From Gillisia limnaea DSM 15749 (lineage in GTDB: Bacteria; Bacteroidota; Bacteroidia; Flavobacteriales; Flavobacteriaceae), in NCBI RefSeq assembly GCF_000243235.1, contig NZ_JH594606.1, forward strand, positions 2,352,572-2,416,571: a stretch of 64,000 bases of DNA. The letters are read 5' to 3'. The translations under genes were made by a program, and so were the position numbers. Position 1 is the stretch's first letter, and every line of letters starts with the position of its first letter. Under the pieces are notes generated by a model. It searched no databases. It had not been told where the DNA came from and saw only the letters and a program-made list of their open reading frames with translations. Positions 150 through 16,045 of this stretch are shown here, in pieces.

Positions 150-1730
150 TTAGATTAAATCGAAGTTTGCCACAATTTTTTTCTTCAATTCTTCCCCTTT
201 TTCGAACTGTTCTAACAACTGCGCCTTAAGGCTCTTCATTTTTTCTTCAAAGGGAATCCCGTCATCTTCTTCGGCTTCTGTGCCTACATAGATGCCCGGA
301 GTGAGTTTGTAATCCTGCTTTTGCACCTCGGCTATGGTAGCTGCTTTGGAGAAACCTTCAATATCAAGGTAATCCTCCCCCGGCATGTTGCGCCATTTGT
401 GGTAAGTTTCGGATATCCTTTGGATATCCTCATCTGTAAATACTCGCAATTTGCGACTGGCCATTGTGCCCATTTTGGAGGCGTCCAGGAATAGGATCTC
501 ATTATTGCGCTCCCGGTGGGTTCCGTCTTTTCCGTCGCGGTTTTTGCTCAGGATGAAAAGGCAGGCCGGGATTCCGGTGGTAAGGAACAGCTTATCGGGT
601 AGGCGTACAATGGCATCAATCATAGAATTGTCTACCATATGCTGCCGTACGTTTTTCTCGCCTTTGTTGTTGGAAGTCATCGCGCCGTTTGCCATTACAA
701 TTCCTGCAGTGCCGGTGTCGCTTAAATGGTGCCAGAAGGTTTGCATCCACATATAATTGGCGCTGCCATCTGTTGTGAATTCTTCCTTGGGTCCAAATAA
801 CCTTGGGTCGCCATCGGGCAGATCCTCAGGATGCCAGTTGCTTACATTAAAAGGCGGATTGGCGATAATATAGTCGGCTTTCAGGTTTGGGAATTTGTCA
901 TCCAGTAATGAATTCCCCAGTTTAATATCAAAAGAAAGGTCCCGCAGCATCAGGTTCATTAGACAAAGTCTTAATGTTTGTGCGGTCATTTCCTGTCCGT
1001 AGATCGCGATGTCTTTTTTGTTCCCGCCGTGTTCTTTGATGAACTTCAAACTCTGCACAAACATACCGCCACTCCCACAAGCCGGATCAAAGATGCGCCC
1101 TTTATAAGGTTCCAGCAATTCCACCAGCAGCCTTACAATACTTCCCGGTGTAAAGAACTGTCCCGCACCGGAACCTTCGGCCATTGCGAAGCGGCCAATG
1201 TAATATTCATAGATACGACCCAGGATATCGCTTTCAGGATTTTCCTTTTCAGAAAATTTAGGGTGGGAGAGGAGGTTGATGATTCCGCCGGTTTGTTTGG
1301 GAGAAAGTTCACTCCGCACAAAAATCCGCGGCAAAATATTCACCAACTGGGGGTTATACCCTGTTAGCAATTCCTGAATCACATCAAAGGCATCATCTAC
1401 CTTCACCTTGATATCATCCTGCTCGGCATTGTCCTTTAAATATTGCCAGGAAGCAGTTTCAGGAATTTTAAAAGTATTCCGGGAGCGGTATTCATCCCGG
1501 TCCTCCAGGACGTAATTAATCTCATCCTTATCTGTAGTGTAATAATCAGATTCCGGATCATTTAGCTGCTCCTTCAATTCCTCGCGCACCACTTCATAGC
1601 GTTCGCTAAGGTGCTTTACGAAAACAAGGGGTAAAATGTATTTTTTATAGTTATTCTCAGATACTGCGCCACGTAATTCGTTCGCTGCATCCCAGAGTTC
1701 TTTTTCAAAATCAATGTCTGCTTTTGCCAT
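150..1730 (-). CDS. hsdM: Type I restriction-modification system DNA methyltransferase subunit
   Basis: This 526-residue protein is an N6-adenine methyltransferase of the HsdM family. The N-terminal ~150 residues match the helical HsdM_N domain (begins MAKADIDFEKELWDAANELR). The catalytic domain carries the S-adenosylmethionine motif DPACGSGGM near residue 215 and the amino-methylation motif NPPF near residue 290. In the complex, two HsdM copies with one HsdS methylate the target site, and HsdR cleaves unmethylated DNA. The length is normal and the frame is intact. The KilA-N gene follows directly downstream; HsdS and HsdR are not in view, so completeness of the system cannot be judged. Confidence 0.95.
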   Translation of the reverse strand: MAKADIDFEKELWDAANELRGAVSENNYKKYILPLVFVKHLSERYEVVREELKEQLNDPESDYYTTDKDEINYVLEDRDEYRSRNTFKIPETASWQYLKDNAEQDDIKVKVDDAFDVIQELLTGYNPQLVNILPRIFVRSELSPKQTGGIINLLSHPKFSEKENPESDILGRIYEYYIGRFAMAEGSGAGQFFTPGSIVRLLVELLEPYKGRIFDPACGSGGMFVQSLKFIKEHGGNKKDIAIYGQEMTAQTLRLCLMNLMLRDLSFDIKLGNSLLDDKFPNLKADYIIANPPFNVSNWHPEDLPDGDPRLFGPKEEFTTDGSANYMWMQTFWHHLSDTGTAGIVMANGAMTSNNKGEKNVRQHMVDNSMIDAIVRLPDKLFLTTGIPACLFILSKNRDGKDGTHRERNNEILFLDASKMGTMASRKLRVFTDEDIQRISETYHKWRNMPGEDYLDIEGFSKAATIAEVQKQDYKLTPGIYVGTEAEEDDGIPFEEKMKSLKAQLLEQFEKGEELKKKIVANFDLI

Positions 1731-4398: not shown

Positions 4399-4638
4399 AT
4401 GAAAAACAACAGCTCAAATAAATATTCAGGAAAAATGCACGCTGCAATTGATTTTTATTCTGAAACTCAATCAGTAATCCTTCCTAAGTTAGATTGCGCC
4501 CATGAAAAATACTTACATGGCGTGAAAAACAGTGTTTCACAGGTAGTTTTTATGAAAAACGATTATTCTATGGGTGATATTTTGAAGAAAGGTTATTTTT
4601 CAAAGATCCAAAGAAGAAGGGAGATCTCGCCAGGATAG
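4399..4638 (+). CDS. Small open frame of unknown status
   Basis: An ATG-initiated frame of 79 codons begins MKNNSSNKYSGKMHAAIDFY. Its residue composition is plausible for a protein, but no family is recognised and no promoter was seen. It starts just upstream of the DUF2779 remnant on the opposite strand. It may be chance. Confidence 0.2.
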   Translation: MKNNSSNKYSGKMHAAIDFYSETQSVILPKLDCAHEKYLHGVKNSVSQVVFMKNDYSMGDILKKGYFSKIQRRREISPG

Positions 4639-4841
4639 TTTATAAGTAGCAGTTTATCACAGAACTTTAAATTTGTACGAGTCCGTGAAAAAAGGCAATG
4701 CTTGTATACATCCTGTTAGGTTAGGAGTTCTGTACAAATTATATGGGAGGATCCTACAATTGATATCTTTTGCTTTTTTAAATCAATTTCCCGGAAGAAT
4801 TACTATTCAAAAACCGGGACGTAATATTCTGCTATAATGTC

Positions 4842-4967
4842 CCCAAATCTACCAGAACTAACCTGCGCGTGGTTCCTGTGCTGTTTTTATAGCGTTCGGG
4901 AAGATAAGCGTAAAGTAAAAACAGCAGAGGGCGCATTGGTGCTATGATTTGAAAACGAATCTCTTTT
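4842..4967 (+). repeat. 126-bp direct repeat, left copy
   Basis: This segment recurs at 7741-7866 with 125 of 126 bases identical; the difference is C at 4942 against T at 7841. It is an imperfect palindrome. TGTGCTGTTTTTA pairs with TAAAAACAGCAGA around a ~26-base loop; further out TGCGC pairs with GCGCA, and CAAATC near the left end pairs with GATTTG near the right end, leaving unpaired bulges. It lies ~270 bp upstream of the protease-gasdermin pair. Confidence 0.95.
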
Positions 4968-5185
4968 TTCCAGTTGATAATGAAAGTGCAAGAGGTTGAT
5001 CTTTCGGGTAGCTCAACCTTTAATGTTTAGGAGGAAAGAATCAAATCATATAAAATATAGTTGACTGTAATATAGCAGTTTATGTTTTTTTTATTTAAAT
5101 TTAAATAAGCGTAAAAGGCCATGATCAAATGATCTGGTTTACACGTTGATTTTTCGACCTGTTCACCTAGATCAGGTAAAATCCG

Positions 5186-5217
5186 GAGGGTGATCTTCGT
5201 GAGAGCCCTCTTTTTTT
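5186..5217 (+). terminator. Candidate intrinsic terminator upstream of the CHAT gene
   Basis: GAGGG (5186-5190) can pair with CCCTC (5206-5210), directly followed by seven T residues. It would end transcription arriving from the left before the protease gene at 5240. The stem is short, so a role as leader hairpin is also possible. Confidence 0.4.
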
Positions 5218-5239
5218 AAGAACTTTTTATTAGGGGGGT

Positions 5240-6937
5240 ATGCACATAATTTTTCAATATCCGATAGTTGACTTAAGAGATATAGTTTCTGGCGGTAATG
5301 GTAGGCTGAATGATCCCAAATGGCCAGATCCACAGGAAAGAAGGCAATCTTTTGTAAGCGGTTTTGGAAAAGTTAAATCACGCAATTTGGGTGGTAGCGA
5401 TAATTTTACCGGGGAGTCTTATTATTGTGATTCTCATTCAGCTATTAAATTCAAAGAGCTTCAACATCAGGGGTTTTCCGAAGGTATTACAACACCAGCC
5501 TCTATTTTTAATAGTTACAGAAGGTATTATAACGATGGGCGGTTTGTAGGTAAGGTGGAAATAGGGTTGATAGATAATCTAGAAAAAATCATTCGAAATT
5601 ATCCTGGTTCTGAAGGCATTCAAATTAGCTCAATTTTAAAACACTATTCCAACTTAGAGGCAACTGTAGAGGATGAACAGGTTAAATTATATAAAGCCGG
5701 CCCTCGTTTATCTAAAAAGTATCAAAGAGAGTCAACTTTGAGAGAAAAGCATTTCCAAATAAACCCAGATTATGTTCAAACTGGTGAATTAACTATTGTA
5801 CTAACTTATTCCAGCCACGAACGGTTAATAGTACCCCGCCGGTCATTTTCTCTGGAAAAGATTGAATTGCCAAATGATGCTGGGTCTATTGAATTATTTG
5901 GCTATAAATTAAAGCAGGATGGTTATCCAACAAAAGTCTGGATTATTAAAATACCTGCCAATTTTCGATCAAAATCTGGTAAACATAAAACTATTCTACG
6001 TGATCTTAGGATGAACCTACTTCGTATACATCTTGAAAAAGAAACGATAAAGATTTTACTAAATGCGATAAAATATAAACAAATTGAACTTGAAAAGGAG
6101 AGCGCAGAGGCAAAACAGGTAAATGCATATTTTGAGCAAACCTCAAAAAAGTTGTTCCGTAAATCCCGCTATGATATTAAACAGGAGAATCTGTTAGATT
6201 TTGCTCTACAAAGCGAAAAAAGTATGGACAAGGGAAGTTTTAATAGTTTAAAAGAAAACATAACTTACTTTCAGGATGAGTTTATGCTAGATAATCTAGG
6301 GAAGCTAGTTGGTTCTATGGCGGTAAAACCAATGCTTTTCGTGTGTTCCAACCCCAGAGATAGCAATTTTATAGATTTTGATAAAGAGTATAAGGACTTA
6401 AAATATAACCTTCAAAGAGCAATAGATAGGGATCACTATGACATTGAAATAGAACTATCTGTTACCAAAGATGAATTCAAAGATATTCTGGATCGATATA
6501 AACCTCAATTTCTGCATTTATCAATGCACGCCACGGTTAAAGACGGATTACATTTTGAGGATAAGAATAAAGCTATACTTCCAATGTCTGTAAAAGAATT
6601 TAAACAGATCATAGAACGCTACACCAAGAAACATGAATTAAAGTTAGTACTTATAAGCGCATGCAACAGTAAGAACCATGCGAAAGCGATTAAGGAGTAT
6701 TGCGATTTCGCTATTGGTACAAAAGCTGTCTTTCCTGTGCCCGCGGCTTTAATTTACTCCAATAATTTTTATACTACATTATTTAATGGTTACCAAAAGG
6801 ACCTGGAATACTGTCATTCCGGTGCCATTAACGCAATTGAATTCAATAATCCAAAATTTGACGACTTAGATTATAAAAATAAAAAAATTCGCGTCCATGA
6901 AATCCCAGTATTAATTAAAAACTCAAAATATGTCTAA
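5240..6937 (+). CDS. CHAT-domain caspase-like protease of a gasdermin defence module
   Basis: The 565-residue protein has a C-terminal CHAT-type peptidase domain from about residue 350. The catalytic histidine is His430 in LHLSMHATV and the catalytic cysteine is Cys475 in LVLISACNS. These are followed by FAIGTKAVFPVPAALIYSN, the usual CHAT strand-helix ending. The N-terminal ~345 residues match nothing I recognise and include a helical, glutamate/lysine-rich stretch (~255-330), perhaps the sensing part. The stop overlaps the next gene by 8 bp, implying translational coupling. Known bacterial gasdermins sit next to such proteases, which cut an inhibitory C-terminal tail from the pore former. 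That role is inferred here from domain plus neighbour. No signal peptide is seen, so it is cytoplasmic. Confidence 0.85.
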   Translation: MHIIFQYPIVDLRDIVSGGNGRLNDPKWPDPQERRQSFVSGFGKVKSRNLGGSDNFTGESYYCDSHSAIKFKELQHQGFSEGITTPASIFNSYRRYYNDGRFVGKVEIGLIDNLEKIIRNYPGSEGIQISSILKHYSNLEATVEDEQVKLYKAGPRLSKKYQRESTLREKHFQINPDYVQTGELTIVLTYSSHERLIVPRRSFSLEKIELPNDAGSIELFGYKLKQDGYPTKVWIIKIPANFRSKSGKHKTILRDLRMNLLRIHLEKETIKILLNAIKYKQIELEKESAEAKQVNAYFEQTSKKLFRKSRYDIKQENLLDFALQSEKSMDKGSFNSLKENITYFQDEFMLDNLGKLVGSMAVKPMLFVCSNPRDSNFIDFDKEYKDLKYNLQRAIDRDHYDIEIELSVTKDEFKDILDRYKPQFLHLSMHATVKDGLHFEDKNKAILPMSVKEFKQIIERYTKKHELKLVLISACNSKNHAKAIKEYCDFAIGTKAVFPVPAALIYSNNFYTTLFNGYQKDLEYCHSGAINAIEFNNPKFDDLDYKNKKIRVHEIPVLIKNSKYV

Positions 6938-7730
6938 AGTTCTTAAGAATGCCCTGGCAGGTTACGGTTATAATTTAGTAGCTCTGCCTAAAGAAGGTAT
7001 CGCTCCTTTGCTTTTGTTGTATAAAAATAAAAGAGATGTAAGTTCCTCCGGGAATAATATCGATAAATTATTTGCCCTGGCAGATAGCCCGCCTCCAATA
7101 GTTTCGAAGAATAATGCTACCCTTAATCTTCAGCAAAATTCTACGGTTAGTTTCGATGGAAAAGCCGGGGTGGATATTCTGGATTGGTTGCTTCAAAAGT
7201 TAAAAATGGGGAAACTTAGAGGAAACATAAATGCAGATCATATAAATTCTCTGCAAATAAGCTACCAAAATGTTTTTGAGGATAATGTTTCGCTTTTGCA
7301 ATTAGATAATTTTATTAGTGGGTCTGAACCTAAAGTGGACCAGTTTAATACGTTTAAAGAAAAGCTTAAAGACAACGAATTATTTGTCATCAATTCCGTA
7401 CTAAAGAGTAACAGTTTCTCCGTTTCAGCCCAAAATAAAAACGGCCAAAATATTGATCTGGAGGCTACTATTAAAGGAATAGTAGATGCAGATGTTAATG
7501 TAGGAAGGTCCAAAAAAGATGAAGTACTTATGGAGTATAAAAATGCAACACCAATTGTTTTTGCATTTAAAGCTCAAAAAATAATTTATGATCATAAGAA
7601 GTGGTGGCAGTTCTTTAAAAAAGGAGACGCTAAATTCCGAATTAAAGATGAGCACGGGGTGGTGTTAAAAGATGAAAGTGGTTTTCCAACGCAGAGTCTG
7701 GAAGAAACTAACGAGCTTATTAATATTTGA
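6930..7730 (+). CDS. bGSDM: Bacterial gasdermin (pore-forming effector)
   Basis: The 266-residue protein opens MSKVLKNALAGYGYNLVALP and continues KEGIAPLLLL. I recognise this as the characteristic bacterial gasdermin N-terminus. The length, a DHINSLQISYQNVFEDNV segment, and the late PIVFAFKAQKIIYDHKKWW segment also fit. Family knowledge: the full protein is autoinhibited by a short C-terminal tail; after proteolysis the N-terminal part forms large membrane pores and kills the infected cell. The likely tail here is the last ~20 residues (PTQSLEETNELINI and upstream). The partner is the overlapping CHAT protease. There is no cysteine anywhere in the protein, so the N-terminal palmitoylated cysteine described for some homologues is absent. 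No signal peptide is present. Confidence 0.8.
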   Translation: MSKVLKNALAGYGYNLVALPKEGIAPLLLLYKNKRDVSSSGNNIDKLFALADSPPPIVSKNNATLNLQQNSTVSFDGKAGVDILDWLLQKLKMGKLRGNINADHINSLQISYQNVFEDNVSLLQLDNFISGSEPKVDQFNTFKEKLKDNELFVINSVLKSNSFSVSAQNKNGQNIDLEATIKGIVDADVNVGRSKKDEVLMEYKNATPIVFAFKAQKIIYDHKKWWQFFKKGDAKFRIKDEHGVVLKDESGFPTQSLEETNELINI

Positions 7731-7740
7731 AGATTGCACT

Positions 7741-7866
7741 CCCAAATCTACCAGAACTAACCTGCGCGTGGTTCCTGTGCTGTTTTTATAGCGTTCGGGA
7801 AGATAAGCGTAAAGTAAAAACAGCAGAGGGCGCATTGGTGTTATGATTTGAAAACGAATCTCTTTT
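7741..7866 (+). repeat. 126-bp direct repeat, right copy
   Basis: This is the second copy of the 4842-4967 repeat. It starts 10 bases after the gasdermin stop codon. Position directly 3' of the last cassette gene and the palindromic, bulged structure recall integron attC sites, although no canonical core site was identified. Confidence 0.95.
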
Positions 7867-7898
7867 CTTTCTACTCAAGATGAAATTACATACAAAAT

Positions 7899-7920
7899 AT
7901 CGTGTATCGCGATACCCGAT
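7899..7920. promoter_or_regulatory. 22-bp near-perfect palindrome, candidate operator
   Basis: GTATCGCGATAC (7904-7915) is a perfect 12-bp palindrome, extended by ATCG and CGAT beyond one mismatched pair to 7899-7920. A partial copy, CCGCGATACGC, follows near 7968-7978. Both lie upstream of the lipoprotein gene at 8015, so they could bind a regulator. No linked regulator gene is obvious. Confidence 0.45.
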
Positions 7921-8014
7921 ACTACAATTTAAAGGTTGTGAATAATGAAATAAAAAGTAATATTACATACCGCGATACGCAAGAAAATTTGCGAAATTCC
8001 AACAATAGAGGCTT

Positions 8015-8698
8015 TTGATAGAGAACAGATATTCGAAAATTTTGAAATTAAGAATTTGCACCTTAATCTTTTCTTTAGTTTTATCAGGGTGCCAGAACAA
8101 TTCCAAAGTTTCAGAAGAAAAACCAACGCAAACCACTGTGGAAAGGGTTCAAACTACAAGTTCACCTAAACAAACTGGAGAAGCTCTGGATTCACCTTCT
8201 TCAGAAAAACCATTATTGGTTATTACGTCCAATGCACTTCAGATAGTGAGTCGACCTTCGGGTAGCACTACAGAACTCCCTACAGGAATGGAAATGGGAG
8301 AATTAAGTAAGATTGTGGCGAATGTCTTAAATACTGAAATTCCGGAACCTCAGGTTAATTCAGAATGTGGTGCAGGCGCTATGACTATGTTAATTTGGGG
8401 AAATGGTTTAAACCTGATGTTCCAAAAAGGACAGGGATCTGAATCAGATAAGATGCTTTTTGTGGGATGGAGCCTGGGAGAGTTCAACAATGAGGGCAAT
8501 TTAACTACAATGGCCGGGATAGGAGTGGGGTCAAAAAGATCTGAACTGGAAGCAGCCTATACTATTGAAGTTAAGAAAACCACCCTTGGTTATGAGTTTT
8601 CTACCGGTCCTGAAGGTTTATATGGCATCCTTAAAGGCCCATCTCCGGATGATAAAATTGAATTTATGTGGAGTGGACTCAGTTGCAACTTTCGGTAA
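8015..8698 (+). CDS. Hypothetical lipoprotein
   Basis: The 227-residue frame starts with TTG; no ATG is available upstream of the signal peptide. Residues 1-25 form a lipoprotein signal sequence with lipobox LVLSGC and lipidated Cys26. A Thr/Ser-rich linker (~30-70) is followed by a globular domain containing NSECGAGAMTMLIWGNGLNL and AGIGVGSKRSELEAAY. Uncharacterised envelope lipoproteins with the ECGAGPM and GVGSTRAELEA pattern exist, but the function is not known to me. It starts 150 bp after the right-hand 126-bp repeat and seems separate from the gasdermin pair. An uncommon start codon is the main oddity. Confidence 0.7.
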   Translation: MIENRYSKILKLRICTLIFSLVLSGCQNNSKVSEEKPTQTTVERVQTTSSPKQTGEALDSPSSEKPLLVITSNALQIVSRPSGSTTELPTGMEMGELSKIVANVLNTEIPEPQVNSECGAGAMTMLIWGNGLNLMFQKGQGSESDKMLFVGWSLGEFNNEGNLTTMAGIGVGSKRSELEAAYTIEVKKTTLGYEFSTGPEGLYGILKGPSPDDKIEFMWSGLSCNFR

Positions 8699-9876: not shown

Positions 9877-10239
9877 CTATCTATAAAAATCTGGATGGGT
9901 ATCATCCTCTTCATAGGCTTTTTTCTCACGATACAGATGCTTGTTTCTGGGATCTGCGATTTTTATAAGATTAAGAAGAATTTTGAGCGTAGGCTCTAAA
10001 GAATCTTTTTCCATTTTACGTAATAGTACTTCCAGGGCATCCATTCTTTTATTGAAAATATGGAGCAATCTGTAATTAGTAAGAGGGAATGGTCTAAAGG
10101 GAGAGATATAATTCTTTTCAAAAAAGTCCAGCATCGCTTCTAAGGTTTCGGTATAATTCACATCATTTTCCGCAGCGTATTTTTTAAAACGTTCTACTGT
10201 TTCAGTATGAAAGTTAATTCGGGAGAAATTCCTGCTCAT
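9877..10239 (-). CDS. bfmA: BfmA/BtgA-family mobilization accessory protein
   Basis: The 120-residue protein begins MSRNFSRINFHTETVERFKK, a ribbon-helix-helix DNA-binding motif, and continues with AMLDFFEKNYISPF, as in the BfmA/BtgA family of Bacteroidetes mobilizable elements. Such proteins bind near the origin of transfer and help a relaxase. The relaxase gene usually follows directly downstream. Here the downstream side (below 9877) carries only the DUF4256 remnant, so the relaxase appears lost. Upstream lies a 580-bp gap and then a DnaC-like gene on the same strand. Confidence 0.75.
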   Translation of the reverse strand: MSRNFSRINFHTETVERFKKYAAENDVNYTETLEAMLDFFEKNYISPFRPFPLTNYRLLHIFNKRMDALEVLLRKMEKDSLEPTLKILLNLIKIADPRNKHLYREKKAYEEDDTHPDFYR

Positions 10240-13426: not shown

Positions 13427-14530
13427 TTATTCCAATTTTAAAAAGTAAGAAGTACTTCTCCCTCCACCTTCCCTGGTAAGAATACCTTTGTCATAAAGAT
13501 CTTGTAAATCCCGTGTTGCAGTTGGTTTGGAGGTTTTATTTAAGGAAACATATTTTCTTGCATTCATTCCGCCATCAAAAGCTTTGGGACCAGATTTAAG
13601 CATACGTCGAACAGCTTTTTCCTGCCTTTGGTTTAACTGATGTTTATACCGGTCAAAAAACTTAGTTTTTTTAAGGGTAAATTCAATCAGGGATTCGGCA
13701 TCTATCTGGGCAGATATAGTAGTTTTTACAAAGTAAGTAATCCAGGGCGTGATTTCGTTTGATCTTTGGGCCAGTTGCAAAGCAGCATAATATTCTTTCT
13801 TTTCTACTTCCATAGCTTTCGAAAGACTCAATACTATGGGCCTGTCCATATACTGTGACAAGGCTTTTTCTGAAATGGCCCGTCCAATACGTCCATTTCC
13901 ATCTTCAAAAGGATGGATTGTTTCGAAATAAAGGTGTGCAATTGCCGCCCTAATGATTGGTTTTTTTATTTCCATTTCTCCTCCGCGGCCGGTTTGGTTA
14001 AACCACTGGATAAAGAGGTTCATTTCTTTAGGAACTATTTTAGAAGGAGGAGCCTCATAATGTATTTTTTCTTTTCCCATTGCTCCCGATATTACCTGCA
14101 TTGGTTCTTCATGAGTTCGCCATTGCCCAGCCTGAATTGTGGAGTTCCCTTTCATTAACAAGGTATGCCAGTTGAAAAGGTTTTCTTCAGTAATATATTC
14201 TTTAAAAGTTTTTTGGCCATCGATCATCAATTCTGAAATGCCTTCGGCGGTTTTATCTTTGGAAATAACATCGGTTTTTAATCCAAGATTCTTTTTAATA
14301 GAGGACATTACATCTTTCCTGCTAAGATATTCTCCTTCGATTTCTGAAGTTTTAATAGCTTCGGAAACCAGTAATTCTATAATGGCTTCACTTTTGGTTT
14401 CTTCCGGAAGGCTTTCTAAGATTCCATTAATTTTGCCTGATTTTTCTGAAAATTCATAAAGCATTGTTTCCACGTGGTCGGTGGAGTACTGAAAGTTTGG
14501 CCAGTCTGCCTGTTGCCAGTTATATTTCAT
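13427..14530 (-). CDS. Fic-family AMP-transferase with DUF4172 N-terminus and winged-helix tail
   Basis: The 367-residue protein from ATG 14530 begins MKYNWQQADWPNFQYSTDHV (DUF4172). An inhibitory helix motif TSEIEG near residue 78 fits [ST]xxxE[GN]. The Fic core HPFEDGNGRIGR lies near residue 205, and the C-terminal winged helix reads LNKTSKPTATRDLQDLYDKG. Fic enzymes transfer AMP to target proteins; the inhibitory glutamate here blocks ATP in cis. A longer frame begins 13 codons earlier, but the three homologous copies in the window share only sequence from MKYNW/MNYNW. A 27-bp palindrome directly abuts the start codon, suggesting autoregulation by the tail. Confidence 0.9.
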   Translation of the reverse strand: MKYNWQQADWPNFQYSTDHVETMLYEFSEKSGKINGILESLPEETKSEAIIELLVSEAIKTSEIEGEYLSRKDVMSSIKKNLGLKTDVISKDKTAEGISELMIDGQKTFKEYITEENLFNWHTLLMKGNSTIQAGQWRTHEEPMQVISGAMGKEKIHYEAPPSKIVPKEMNLFIQWFNQTGRGGEMEIKKPIIRAAIAHLYFETIHPFEDGNGRIGRAISEKALSQYMDRPIVLSLSKAMEVEKKEYYAALQLAQRSNEITPWITYFVKTTISAQIDAESLIEFTLKKTKFFDRYKHQLNQRQEKAVRRMLKSGPKAFDGGMNARKYVSLNKTSKPTATRDLQDLYDKGILTREGGGRSTSYFLKLE

Positions 14531-14603
14531 GAGCCGATTATAAATCTTATTCGGCTCAAATATACACAATTAATGATTGGATTAAGAAAGTTATTCGGCT
14601 CAT
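14531..14603 (-). promoter_or_regulatory. Promoter and operator region of the DUF4172-Fic gene
   Basis: A 27-bp palindrome (14531-14557; arms GAGCCGATTATAA and TTATTCGGCTC) abuts the ATG. A third half-site, TTATTCGGCTCAT, lies at 14591-14603. Between them the minus strand has TATATTTG (14557-14564), matching the flavobacterial -7 element TAnnTTTG, so a bound repressor would cover the promoter. The palindrome recurs before two Fic remnants at 15936 and 26917. Confidence 0.65.
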
Positions 14604-14635
14604 AAATTTTCTAAAACCTGATTATGTCAAATTCA

Positions 14636-14765
14636 AGAAGTAAGAAGTACTTCGCCCTCCACCTTCCTTTGGCAAGAATACCTTTGCCATAAAGATCCTG
14701 CAAATCCCTTGTGGCAGTGGGTTTGGAAGTTTTAATCAGGAATTGTTTTTAGTGCGTTCATTCCA
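14636..14765 (-). pseudogene. Fic gene fragment, C-terminal winged-helix end
   Basis: With frameshifts the minus strand reads GMNA, KTSKPTATRDLQDLYGKGIL and a disrupted YFLL end. This copies the last ~45 codons of the intact Fic gene just to its left (GMNARKYVSLNKTSKPTATR). It carries internal stops. Its matching N-terminal half is at 15717-15935. Confidence 0.75.
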
Positions 14766-14813
14766 GTTACACGAACTCTAAAAAAGCTTATTATTAATAA
14801 TAATCACCTGAGC

Positions 14814-15617
14814 TTACAACCACTCCAATTGCAAACTTACGTCATAGCCATATTCTTCATTGCTTAGGTTGATTTCGGTGGGTTTTGTATCCCTGTAATC
14901 GGTAAGCCGAATGCTTAATTCCTGGGAACTCCTGGCCAGGTCCTGGCCAATACCATTTCCGTCATCATCCCCAATTCCAAACTCAATTATAGAACGGTCC
15001 GAAATATAAAGTTCTTCCTGGGACAGATCCCACTCTAGTTGTTGCTGATTTGGATATATAGGGGAAAGGTACCATAACCTCATATCTACAGTGGCTTTGG
15101 AAAAATGGATATTTTTTAACTTGCTGAGTGAAAAAATTATATCGGCCAGTCGGTTTGGGTCGTCTTCAGCATATTCTTCGTCCCAGGTGCCATTCATGTT
15201 ATAAAACGAATTGATCCTGAAGCCAATAACTTTCACCGCGTTTCCGCGTGTAACATTAAAATTCAGGGTTTTAGTTGTCTTTTTTCCGCTGATACTGGTA
15301 AATTCCAACTTCACGTCTTCGTTACGTATGTATCCAAATTGGAAGTGCAGGTTAAGGGTTTGCTCATCCAGCCCAGTACCAGGCATCAATGAAGAAACCG
15401 ACTGCGTGCTATTTTCAAGAATTCGAGTGATTTCAAAAATTGCTTCATTGGATTGCACCTTAACTTCAAAAGGAATATCCACTGTAACTTCAGTTACAGA
15501 AGGTGTAAGGGTTACGCTAAAAGCTTCCTTAATTTCAGGAAGCTGTTCAGTTGCGGAATCAGGACTACACGAAAAACAAAGTGTTAGTACCCATATCAGT
15601 AAGATTCTTTTTTCCAT
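14814..15617 (-). CDS. Hypothetical lipoprotein lying inside a broken Fic copy
   Basis: The 267-residue protein begins MEKRILLIWVLTLCFSCSPD, a lipoprotein signal with lipobox CFSC. An upstream ATG two codons earlier is possible. The mature part has beta-rich, Ig-like character (FSVTLTPSVTEVTVDIPFEV, VKLEFTSISGKKTTKTLNF), then a region ending with SNEEYGYDVSLQLEWL. An acidic loop GDDDGNGIGQD could bind calcium. No family is recognised. It occupies the place of the middle of a duplicated Fic gene, so it arrived by insertion or recombination. A 16-bp AT palindrome follows its stop at 14788-14803. Confidence 0.65.
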   Translation of the reverse strand: MEKRILLIWVLTLCFSCSPDSATEQLPEIKEAFSVTLTPSVTEVTVDIPFEVKVQSNEAIFEITRILENSTQSVSSLMPGTGLDEQTLNLHFQFGYIRNEDVKLEFTSISGKKTTKTLNFNVTRGNAVKVIGFRINSFYNMNGTWDEEYAEDDPNRLADIIFSLSKLKNIHFSKATVDMRLWYLSPIYPNQQQLEWDLSQEELYISDRSIIEFGIGDDDGNGIGQDLARSSQELSIRLTDYRDTKPTEINLSNEEYGYDVSLQLEWL

Positions 15618-15716
15618 ATTCAATTTTGAGAAAAACTGAATAAATGTATAATAAAAAAGGATTCGAAAAGTATTATATTTTGAGATTTGAAGAAATTATT
15701 TCAGTTAGCTAAGCAA

Positions 15717-15935
15717 CCTTTCCTGCTAAGATATTCTCCTTCGATTTCTGAAGTTTTAATAGCTTCGGAAATCAATAATTCAATAAAGGTTTCGGTTTTA
15801 ATGACTTTCGGAAGGCTTTCTAAGATTCCATTAATTTTTTCCTGCTTTTTCTGAAAATTCATAGAGCAAAGTTTCCACGAGTTCGGTGGAGTACTGAAAG
15901 TTTGGCCAGTCTGCTTGTTGCCAATTATAGTTCAT
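15717..15935 (-). pseudogene. Fic gene fragment, N-terminal DUF4172 end
   Basis: From ATG 15935 the sequence reads MNYNWQQADWPNFQYSTELV, runs into a stop after KAGKN, and continues in another frame as INGILES and SEAIKTSEIEGEYLSRK. It matches the first ~90 codons of the Fic gene at 13427-14530. A one-base frameshift in an A-run and loss of everything downstream make it non-functional. Confidence 0.8.
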
Positions 15936-15962
15936 TAGCCGATTATAAATCTTATTCGGCTC
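15936..15962. promoter_or_regulatory. Second copy of the Fic operator palindrome
   Basis: AGCCGATTATAA and TTATTCGGCTC arms are retained next to the ATG of the Fic N-terminal remnant. It is identical to the copy at 14531-14557 except for the first base. Confidence 0.65.
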
Positions 15963-16045
15963 ATAAGTTCCGGCGGATCTTTATTAATACAATTTGTGGA
16001 GTAGAGGACTTAGCGGTTTAGACCGGCTAGGTCGAAATCAAGTTA

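What the first reader, a model, noticed from the sequence alone, without database searches (positions are those of the whole stretch)
5240..7730. A CHAT protease and bacterial gasdermin operon in a flavobacterial genome
Seen directly: a 565-residue protein with His430 (LHLSMHATV) and Cys475 (LISACNS) overlaps by 8 bp a 266-residue protein starting with YGYNLVALPKEGIAPL. Established knowledge: bacterial gasdermins are activated when a neighbouring caspase-like protease removes a C-terminal tail, forming pores that kill infected cells. Inference: this pair is such a two-gene abortive-infection system. The 345-residue N-terminal half of the protease matches nothing I recognise and could be a novel phage sensor.
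Basis: partly seen in the sequence, partly recalled or inferred. Interest (0 to 1): 0.85.

Follow-up and report, generated by a model that had tools for sequence, protein, structure and literature searches.

The report
Gasdermin-protease pair with shared front domain
Two overlapping bacterial genes encode a caspase-like protease and the pore-forming gasdermin it probably cuts to kill an infected cell, and the front half of the protease turns out to be a module that other bacteria join to quite different C-terminal parts, which makes it a candidate for the unknown infection trigger.

Summary
ORF 5240-6937 (565 aa) is a CHAT protease with His430/Cys475 on invariant CHAT columns. ORF 6930-7730 (266 aa) is a bacterial gasdermin (NCBIfam 193.9 bits, cut-off 100; PADLOC 1e-69; solved structure 7n51, 1e-21). 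PADLOC's gasdermin-associated 'chat' model covers the protease almost end to end, so the pair is of a known kind.

What adds interest is the N-terminal half (aa 1-~340). It has no Pfam or PHROGs match, yet it is a transferable module. I found ten further proteins with it: one ends in a TIR domain, seven in an unclassified tail, two end with it and overlap a gene with a membrane-like segment. Left-out profiles recover nine of nine members tested (1e-38 to 3e-67; best decoy 0.045). A constant front on changing outputs suits a trigger-sensing domain; the sensing is inferred.

The operon lies between two 126-nt direct repeats (125/126 identical). At the corresponding place two congeners hold one copy with partly matching flanks, so the operon looks like an inserted cassette.

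The gasdermin has no cysteine, hence no palmitoylation site of the kind most relatives carry. No function was tested.

The parts
5240..6937 (+). CHAT-domain protease gene, 565 aa
   Evidence: ORF; PADLOC chat 5.8e-114 over residues 1-564
5240..6253 (+). N-terminal module (aa 1-338), candidate trigger-sensing/regulatory domain shared with proteins that have other C-termini
   Evidence: found at 3e-67, residues 1-338, by a profile built without it; no Pfam or PHROGs match
6323..6853 (+). CHAT peptidase domain (aa 362-538)
   Evidence: CHAT profile built without this protein, 1.2e-33
6527..6529 (+). codon of predicted catalytic His430
   Evidence: invariant column of CHAT alignment; sequence
6662..6664 (+). 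codon of predicted catalytic Cys475
   Evidence: invariant column of CHAT alignment; sequence
6930..7730 (+). bacterial gasdermin gene, 266 aa, no cysteine; overlaps the protease gene by 8 bp
7623..7727 (+). C-terminal tail (aa 232-266), presumed autoinhibitory, beyond the stretch aligned to 7n51
   Evidence: alignment to 7n51 ends at residue 231; role inferred from relatives (PMC9612521 passages)
7665..7667 (+). codon of Leu246, one candidate cleavage position (20-aa tail); Arg237 (7638-7640, 29-aa tail) is another
   Evidence: positions computed; rule 'after Leu or Arg about 20 aa from the C-terminus' from PMC9612521; inference only
4842..4967 (+). left copy of the 126-nt palindromic direct repeat
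7741..7866 (+). right copy of the 126-nt repeat, 125/126 identical; begins 11 nt after the last base of the gasdermin gene
9877..10239 (-). BfmA/BtgA-type mobilisation protein; part of a module whose DNA is conserved beside the repeat in congeners
   Evidence: NCBIfam mob_BfmA_Nterm 54 bits, cut-off 24; DNA synteny

Best explanation
A two-gene suicide (abortive-infection) module. The protease is the switch: its N-terminal module (aa 1-~340) keeps the C-terminal CHAT peptidase idle until it meets an infection-associated signal. The freed or clustered CHAT domain then cuts the probably co-translated gasdermin near its C-terminus (Leu246 or Arg237 are the candidate P1 residues), removing a short inhibitory tail. 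The rest of the gasdermin oligomerises into membrane pores and the cell dies before phage is released. The N-terminal module is a transferable trigger domain: elsewhere the same module precedes a TIR domain or an unclassified C-terminal tail, or stands alone before an overlapping gene with a membrane-like segment. Shown here: the identity of both proteins, the intact dyad, and the module's recurrence on different C-termini. Inferred: sensing, cleavage and its site, pore formation, phage defence.
For: Protease and gasdermin families; His430/Cys475 at invariant columns; 8-bp gene overlap. Module recurrence: plasmid proteins L026, L027, L028 align over query residues 1-344, 1-331 and 4-326 only; genomes L031, L032, L037; L049, L050, L051; L072. 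L050 ends in TIR_2, 57.4 bits against cut-off 28. Nine of nine left-out members recovered at 1e-38 to 3e-67; best decoy of any run 0.045 (L049, a near-copy of L026, was kept out of the profiles). A CHAT profile finds no CHAT domain in the eight other members given to it (best E 0.32; L049 and L072 were not given). Relatives of known biochemistry: the Runella gasdermin is cut after L247 by its neighbouring caspase-like protease and permeabilises liposomes (PMC9079055, whole text).
Against: No trigger, cleavage or phage assay exists for this pair. The N-terminal module has no fold match (Foldseek, no hit at E<=0.001 in PDB or BFVD) and its model is of modest confidence (mean pLDDT 64.7), so 'sensor' rests on architecture alone; an oligomerisation or adaptor role fits the same data. 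The gasdermin lacks any cysteine, whereas the majority of bacterial gasdermins are palmitoylated at an N-terminal cysteine (PMC9612521 passage). The residue after Leu246 is Lys, while the Runella site needs a Gly there (PMC9079055). None of the 15 other genomes of the genus searched carries the protease (only 11 of the 16 meet the tool's quality mark), so conservation within the genus gives no support. Whether gasdermins lie beside the other module proteins was not tested.
Confidence: 0.72

Rival explanations
1. The N-terminal module is not the sensor but an oligomerisation or adaptor platform that brings effector domains together; the real trigger is recognised by another host protein.
For: The module precedes a TIR domain in L050; that TIR effectors often work by assembly is recalled. 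It is the constant part of ten distinct proteins. Its last part is predicted as long helices (residues 248-278, 289-305, 315-329), compatible with assembly.
Against: The part up to about residue 240 is predicted as many strands with a few helices and holds scattered invariant residues (P8, D11, R13, P26, W28, G43, R48, E59, D99), which looks to me more like a binding domain. No second conserved partner gene caught the eye in the ORF lists, but neighbours were not systematically scanned.
Confidence: 0.28
2. The pair kills in response to a non-phage stress or to incoming mobile elements, or is autoactive and restrained by another protein, as has been discussed for some gasdermin-protease pairs.
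For: Passages of PMC9612521 describe pairs whose co-expression alone kills; the operon lies near a mobilisable module and an IS200-like transposase gene.
Against: PADLOC lists both proteins as components of defence systems, and the Lysobacter gasdermin operon protects E. coli against coliphages (PMC9079055).
Confidence: 0.2
3. The cassette is silent or decaying and does nothing in this genome.
For: Consensus scans find no excess of sigma-70-like promoter sites in 4700-8100 (12 found on both strands, 12.3 expected), although the scan does not cover other promoter types.
Against: Both frames are open, the dyad is intact, and the two repeat copies differ at one base in 126, consistent with recent arrival.
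Confidence: 0.06

Closest known systems
Bacterial gasdermin (bGSDM) with adjacent caspase-like/CHAT protease (Johnson et al. 2022, not held; known here through PMC9079055 whole text and PMC9612521 passages; PADLOC bGSDM + chat)
   Same: Both proteins match the PADLOC models over almost their whole length; two adjacent overlapping genes; predicted His/Cys dyad; short C-terminal tail.
   Different: No cysteine for palmitoylation. The sharing of the N-terminal module with TIR and other C-termini is not described in what I could read.
CARD-NLR gasdermin systems of Lysobacter (Wein et al. 2025, not held; seen only through passages of PMC13236601 and the summary in PMC9079055)
   Same: A gasdermin activated by proteolysis; effectors can be replaced by phospholipases or endonucleases in variants.
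   Different: Those are multi-gene systems with a CARD-containing component, an NLR-like protein and trypsin-like proteases; here two genes lie between the repeats and no CARD or NLR model matched them. Sequence profiles may miss CARD-like folds.
TPR-CHAT of type III-E CRISPR (Craspase; only the abstract starts of PMC9935389 and PMC9729208 in the search listings were seen)
   Same: A CHAT peptidase preceded by a regulatory region and controlled by another signal.
   Different: TPR repeats and control through Cas7-11 and RNA there; no TPR or CRISPR model matched this protein.
Caspase-nuclease (canu) loci (PMC12799240, passages)
   Same: A caspase-family protease activates a neighbouring effector proenzyme.
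   Different: The effector there is a nuclease and the caspase carries an Ig-like fold; here it is a pore-former, and no Ig model matched the protease.

Membership tests
Bacterial gasdermin | Profile match to the gasdermin pore-forming domain above the curated cut-off | tested here: met
   NF051890 193.9 bits against 100; PADLOC bGSDM 1e-69; 7n51 1.1e-21; no Pfam match
Bacterial gasdermin | Predicted or solved gasdermin fold | not tested
Bacterial gasdermin | Short C-terminal autoinhibitory peptide instead of a large C-terminal domain | tested here: inconclusive
   About 35 residues lie beyond the stretch aligned to 7n51; inhibition not testable
Bacterial gasdermin | N-terminal palmitoylated cysteine (in the majority, not all) | tested here: not met
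   The protein contains no cysteine; common but not required, so family membership stands
Bacterial gasdermin | Adjacent protease gene | tested here: met
   CHAT protease gene overlaps by 8 bp
CHAT peptidase (caspase-like) | CHAT domain by profile | tested here: met
   1.2e-33 with a profile built without it; PADLOC chat 5.8e-114; but Pfam CHAT 22.4 bits, under its cut-off of 24
CHAT peptidase (caspase-like) | Catalytic His and Cys at conserved positions | tested here: met
   His430 and Cys475 on invariant columns of seven CHAT sequences; geometry not checkable, the model is poor there
CHAT peptidase (caspase-like) | Proteolytic activity on the neighbouring gasdermin | not testable with these tools
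   needs biochemistry
CARD-NLR gasdermin system | CARD-containing component and NLR-like protein | tested here: inconclusive
   No such match above cut-off in the protease, the gasdermin or the neighbouring proteins scanned, but CARD-like folds can be missed by sequence profiles
Antiphage defence system | Protection against phage | not testable with these tools
   needs phage assays in a laboratory strain
Shared N-terminal module family (defined here) | Homology over the ~340-residue module, whatever the C-terminal part | tested here: met
   9 of 9 left-out members at 1e-38 to 3e-67; best decoy 0.045

The most novel reading that the evidence does not exclude
The N-terminal half of the gasdermin-activating protease is an example of an undescribed, transferable infection-sensing domain (invariant P8, D11, R13, P26, W28, G43, R48, E59, D99, R254, R257 in nine aligned members) that recognises one class of phage signal and plugs into different suicide outputs: protease plus gasdermin, TIR, unclassified tails and separate membrane proteins. 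If so, it is the missing trigger for this branch of bacterial gasdermins, and one ligand would switch on all these outputs.
Probability: 0.45. Interest if true: 0.8.

Novelty: new member of a known kind. Interest (0 to 1): 0.56.

Why it matters
What activates bacterial gasdermins is posed as an open question in the review whose passages I read (PMC9612521). A module shared between a gasdermin-activating protease and a TIR protein gives a concrete candidate and a clean test: if it is the sensor, unrelated effectors that carry it should answer to related phage signals. The two-gene form is small enough to express whole in a laboratory strain. The repeat-bracketed cassette also gives a view of how such suicide genes may move between strains near mobilisable elements.

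Tried and rejected
Third gene in the operon: apart from the two genes, the only ORF of 80 aa or more between the repeats is an 83-aa antisense frame inside the gasdermin gene (7262-7513), which I take as chance. Sequence relatives of the N-terminal module among solved structures: no convincing hit (best E 0.012). Fold relatives: two models (mean pLDDT 64.7 and 56.3) gave no Foldseek match at E<=0.001 in PDB, and the first gave none in BFVD; the COP9 subunit rows at the top have TM 0.08-0.14 and rmsd 25-29 A and are ignored. The CHAT half of the full-length model is unusable (pLDDT below 50 for nearly all of 331-565), so the dyad geometry could not be checked. The gasdermin was not folded.

Close relatives by DNA pattern: a genome-contig scan with the gasdermin confirmed none of 63 stretches. 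Phage or viral carriage: no match for the gasdermin in phage records; viral-contig scans with the protease, the gasdermin and versions of the N-terminal module confirmed none; the L026 module found none in phage records.

Integron hypothesis for the repeats: considered and rejected, because the bracketed gene in L063 has the opposite orientation to the repeat compared with the window and the repeat is dispersed through the genus; an integron integrase was not searched for by profile. A bacterial TRADD-N relationship for the tails was considered; no Pfam model reached its cut-off.

The weak G771 row (19.6 bits, 51 positions) was dropped from the module count. L049 was left out of the left-out test because it nearly copies L026 (445 of 480 residues). 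I called the tails helical at first from reading alone; no secondary-structure prediction was run on them, so I call them unclassified.

Full report
What is there. The window holds two overlapping genes on the + strand, 5240-6937 (565 aa) and 6930-7730 (266 aa), overlapping by 8 bp. The smaller protein is a bacterial gasdermin: NCBIfam prok_gasdermin 193.9 bits against a cut-off of 100, PADLOC bGSDM 1e-69, and solved gasdermins 7n51 and 8sl0 at 1.1e-21 and 1.9e-21. Pfam has no match for it. The larger is a CHAT protease. PADLOC's 'chat' model covers residues 1-564 at 5.8e-114. Pfam CHAT falls just short of its cut-off (22.4 against 24 bits), but a CHAT profile made from six other proteins finds it at 1.2e-33, residues 362-538. 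His430 and Cys475 sit on invariant columns of that alignment. The search of the whole genome gave one match to the protease. Among 16 genomes of the genus, 11 of them of good quality by the tool's mark, only this one has it. Gasdermins are rare around it: 5 of 299 genomes of the family, 4 of 395 of the order with a protein query and 3 of 395 of the phylum. These counts include the window's own genome, and the draws overlap.

The N-terminal half is a module. A translated search of plasmids with the whole protease gave 37 records, 20 of them listed. Three, in Nitrosomonas europaea, Rhizobium brockwellii and a Streptomyces, matched only residues 1-344, 1-331 and 4-326; the 17 other rows listed matched the CHAT half, some with 70-90 residues before it. 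A search of 345 genomes of the phylum gave 9 with a match: the own genome, three that match the N-terminal half (G799, G665, G786) and five that match the CHAT half. A scan of named genomes with a three-row alignment confirmed 3 of 112 stretches: a Variovorax, Nitrosomonas nitrosa and a Bacteroidetes MAG. Profile searches gave 3 of 98 genomes, one of them new (G987), and 2 of 148 and 2 of 164, with only known members and one weak row that I dropped; the draws overlap. That makes eleven proteins, ten if the Nitrosomonas europaea and Variovorax copies (445 of 480 residues identical) count once. When each of nine members is left out and sought with a profile of the others, nine of nine are found, at 1e-38 to 3e-67 over 313-352 residues; the best reversed or shuffled decoy in any run is 0.045. 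The tenth, L072, was found with the nine-row profile at 6e-93.

What the module is joined to. In the window it is CHAT, followed by the gasdermin. In L050 (Nitrosomonas nitrosa) it is a TIR domain (TIR_2 57.4 bits, cut-off 28). In seven proteins (L026, L049, L027, L028, L051, L032, L072) it is a tail of roughly 130-155 residues with no Pfam match above cut-off. Six of these tails, one per distinct protein, find each other only weakly (left-out E 1.1e-6 to 3.1e-3; best decoys 0.0076 to 0.28), so they are at most one loose class. L026, L049 and L027 match PADLOC's candidate family PDC-M14B (8.9e-8, 4.2e-8 and 3.3e-4). L026 and L049 end in a hydrophobic stretch (19-residue hydropathy 2.03) and L027 reaches 1.53, but L028, L051 and L032 stay below 1.4 and L072 was not measured, so a membrane role is suggested for some and not shown for all. 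In L031 and L037 the protein ends with the module or soon after, and an overlapping downstream ORF carries a strongly hydrophobic segment (2.42 and 1.93). CHAT was found in none of the eight other members given to the CHAT profile. Two of the three plasmid genes sit near restriction, methyltransferase, helicase or candidate defence genes (L026, L027). Whether gasdermins lie beside the other members was not tested.

What is known of the module. It has no match in Pfam or PHROGs, and NCBIfam has none for the whole protease. PADLOC's 'chat' model does contain it: the first 345 residues alone score 217.9 bits. So other gasdermin-linked CHAT proteases presumably carry it, and the idea that it is peculiar to this protein needs correcting; yet the modules of L026, L050 and L051 alone get no PADLOC match. 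None of the passages I read describes it; the literature searches were made, most of whose papers I saw only as listings. The primary gasdermin papers are not held, so I cannot say that it is absent from them.

How it most likely works. From relatives: a bacterial gasdermin is held inactive by a C-terminal peptide of about 20 residues, a neighbouring caspase-like protease cuts after Leu or Arg about 20 residues from the end, and the remainder forms pores (PMC9612521 passages; PMC9079055 whole text; PMC10989679 passages). Here Leu246 (20-residue tail) and Arg237 (29-residue tail) are the candidates. The Runella site also needs Gly after the cut, which neither has, so the site is a guess. The gasdermin has no cysteine at all, whereas the majority of relatives carry a palmitoylated N-terminal cysteine; PMC9612521 says that removing the lipid lowers pore efficiency where it is present. 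The protease's N-terminal module is the natural place for the trigger, because it stays constant while the output changes. The same logic would also fit an assembly platform, and I keep that as the main rival. The predicted structure of the module (mean pLDDT 64.7, pTM 0.72) shows many strands and a few helices up to about residue 240 (residues 20-67 are of low confidence), then long helices at 248-278, 289-305 and 315-329. Fold searches returned nothing significant, and at this confidence that says little.

The cassette. The operon lies between two 126-nt direct repeats at 4842-4967 and 7741-7866, 125 of 126 identical. The repeat folds into a long hairpin (z -3.1 against shuffles). It is a dispersed element: 14 of 60 genomes searched, the own one included, hold copies, among them 10 of the 16 of the genus. 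In the 10-kb stretches fetched from two congeners (L064, L065) one copy lies near DNA that is 80-82% identical to the window's mobilisation region at 9.9-13.4 kb. In L065 the sequence to the right of the repeat matches what follows the window's right repeat (86% over 975 nt including the repeat), and a stretch left of the repeat matches one left of the window's left repeat (73% over 134 nt; 67% over 155 nt in L064). Against a simple picture: the left match lies about 240 nt from the repeat in the window but about 50 nt in L065, the rest of the left flank aligns poorly, L064 shares only about 30 nt to the right before its mobilisation gene, and the match of the window's left repeat to L065 runs 18 nt past the repeat on its right. 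The regions just inside the two repeats find no partner there (best E 0.058). This resembles a filled against an empty site, so the operon was probably inserted as a cassette, although a loss in the relatives is not excluded. Beyond the repeat in L065 lie a McrBC-family gene and a AAA ATPase gene, and in L063 two repeat copies bracket a dienelactone-hydrolase gene, so the site holds varied cargo.

Verdict. The pair is real and belongs to a known kind. The new point is the recurrence of its N-terminal module on unrelated C-terminal parts, among them TIR, which turns the open question of the gasdermin trigger into a testable one. No function was shown here.

Noticed in passing
L017:12161-12862(-), L018:9363-10064(+), L020:11564-12265(+), L021:9462-10163(+): A similar 233-aa gasdermin-like protein (MNLTK/MKLTQ...GYDLI) occurs in four relatives, three of the same family and one of the same order, with no protease evident by reading the ORFs within about 4.5 kb (L020 ends soon after the gene; no profile scan of neighbours). 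It may be an orphan gasdermin subfamily with another activation route.
   Followed up: partly
window 4842-4967 and 7741-7866; L063:3025-3135 and 4470-4582; L064:4922-5047; L065:4829-4954; L066:2869-2963; L069:10708-10802: A palindromic element of about 95-126 nt is dispersed through the genus. In five of eight stretches whose ORFs I listed it lies near mobilisation genes (BfmA-type by DNA similarity in L063-L065, relaxase by Pfam in L066 and by reading in L069); two direct copies bracket cargo genes in the window and in L063.
   Followed up: partly
window 30057-55662: Ten ORFs of 794-850 aa in a row on the minus strand look, by reading, like paralogous MacB/FtsX-type ABC permeases, near ATPase, adaptor, outer-membrane-factor and two-component regulator genes. 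An unusually long array; not profile-searched.
   Followed up: no
window 13427-15968: A Fic/DUF4172 gene (13427-14569) whose 3' end and 5' region are repeated as 87-91% identical fragments at 14622-14734 and 15718-15968, suggesting a partial duplication.
   Followed up: no
window 150-1730: A type I restriction-modification HsdM gene (N6_Mtase 321.7 bits, HsdM_N 78.8 bits) lies about 3.5 kb from the operon, with an IS200-type transposase gene between (2297-2809).
   Followed up: partly
L026:6001-7440 and L049:1961-3400: The module-plus-tail protein is 445 of 480 residues identical between a Nitrosomonas europaea plasmid and a 1.45-Mb Variovorax contig, which points to recent transfer.
   Followed up: no
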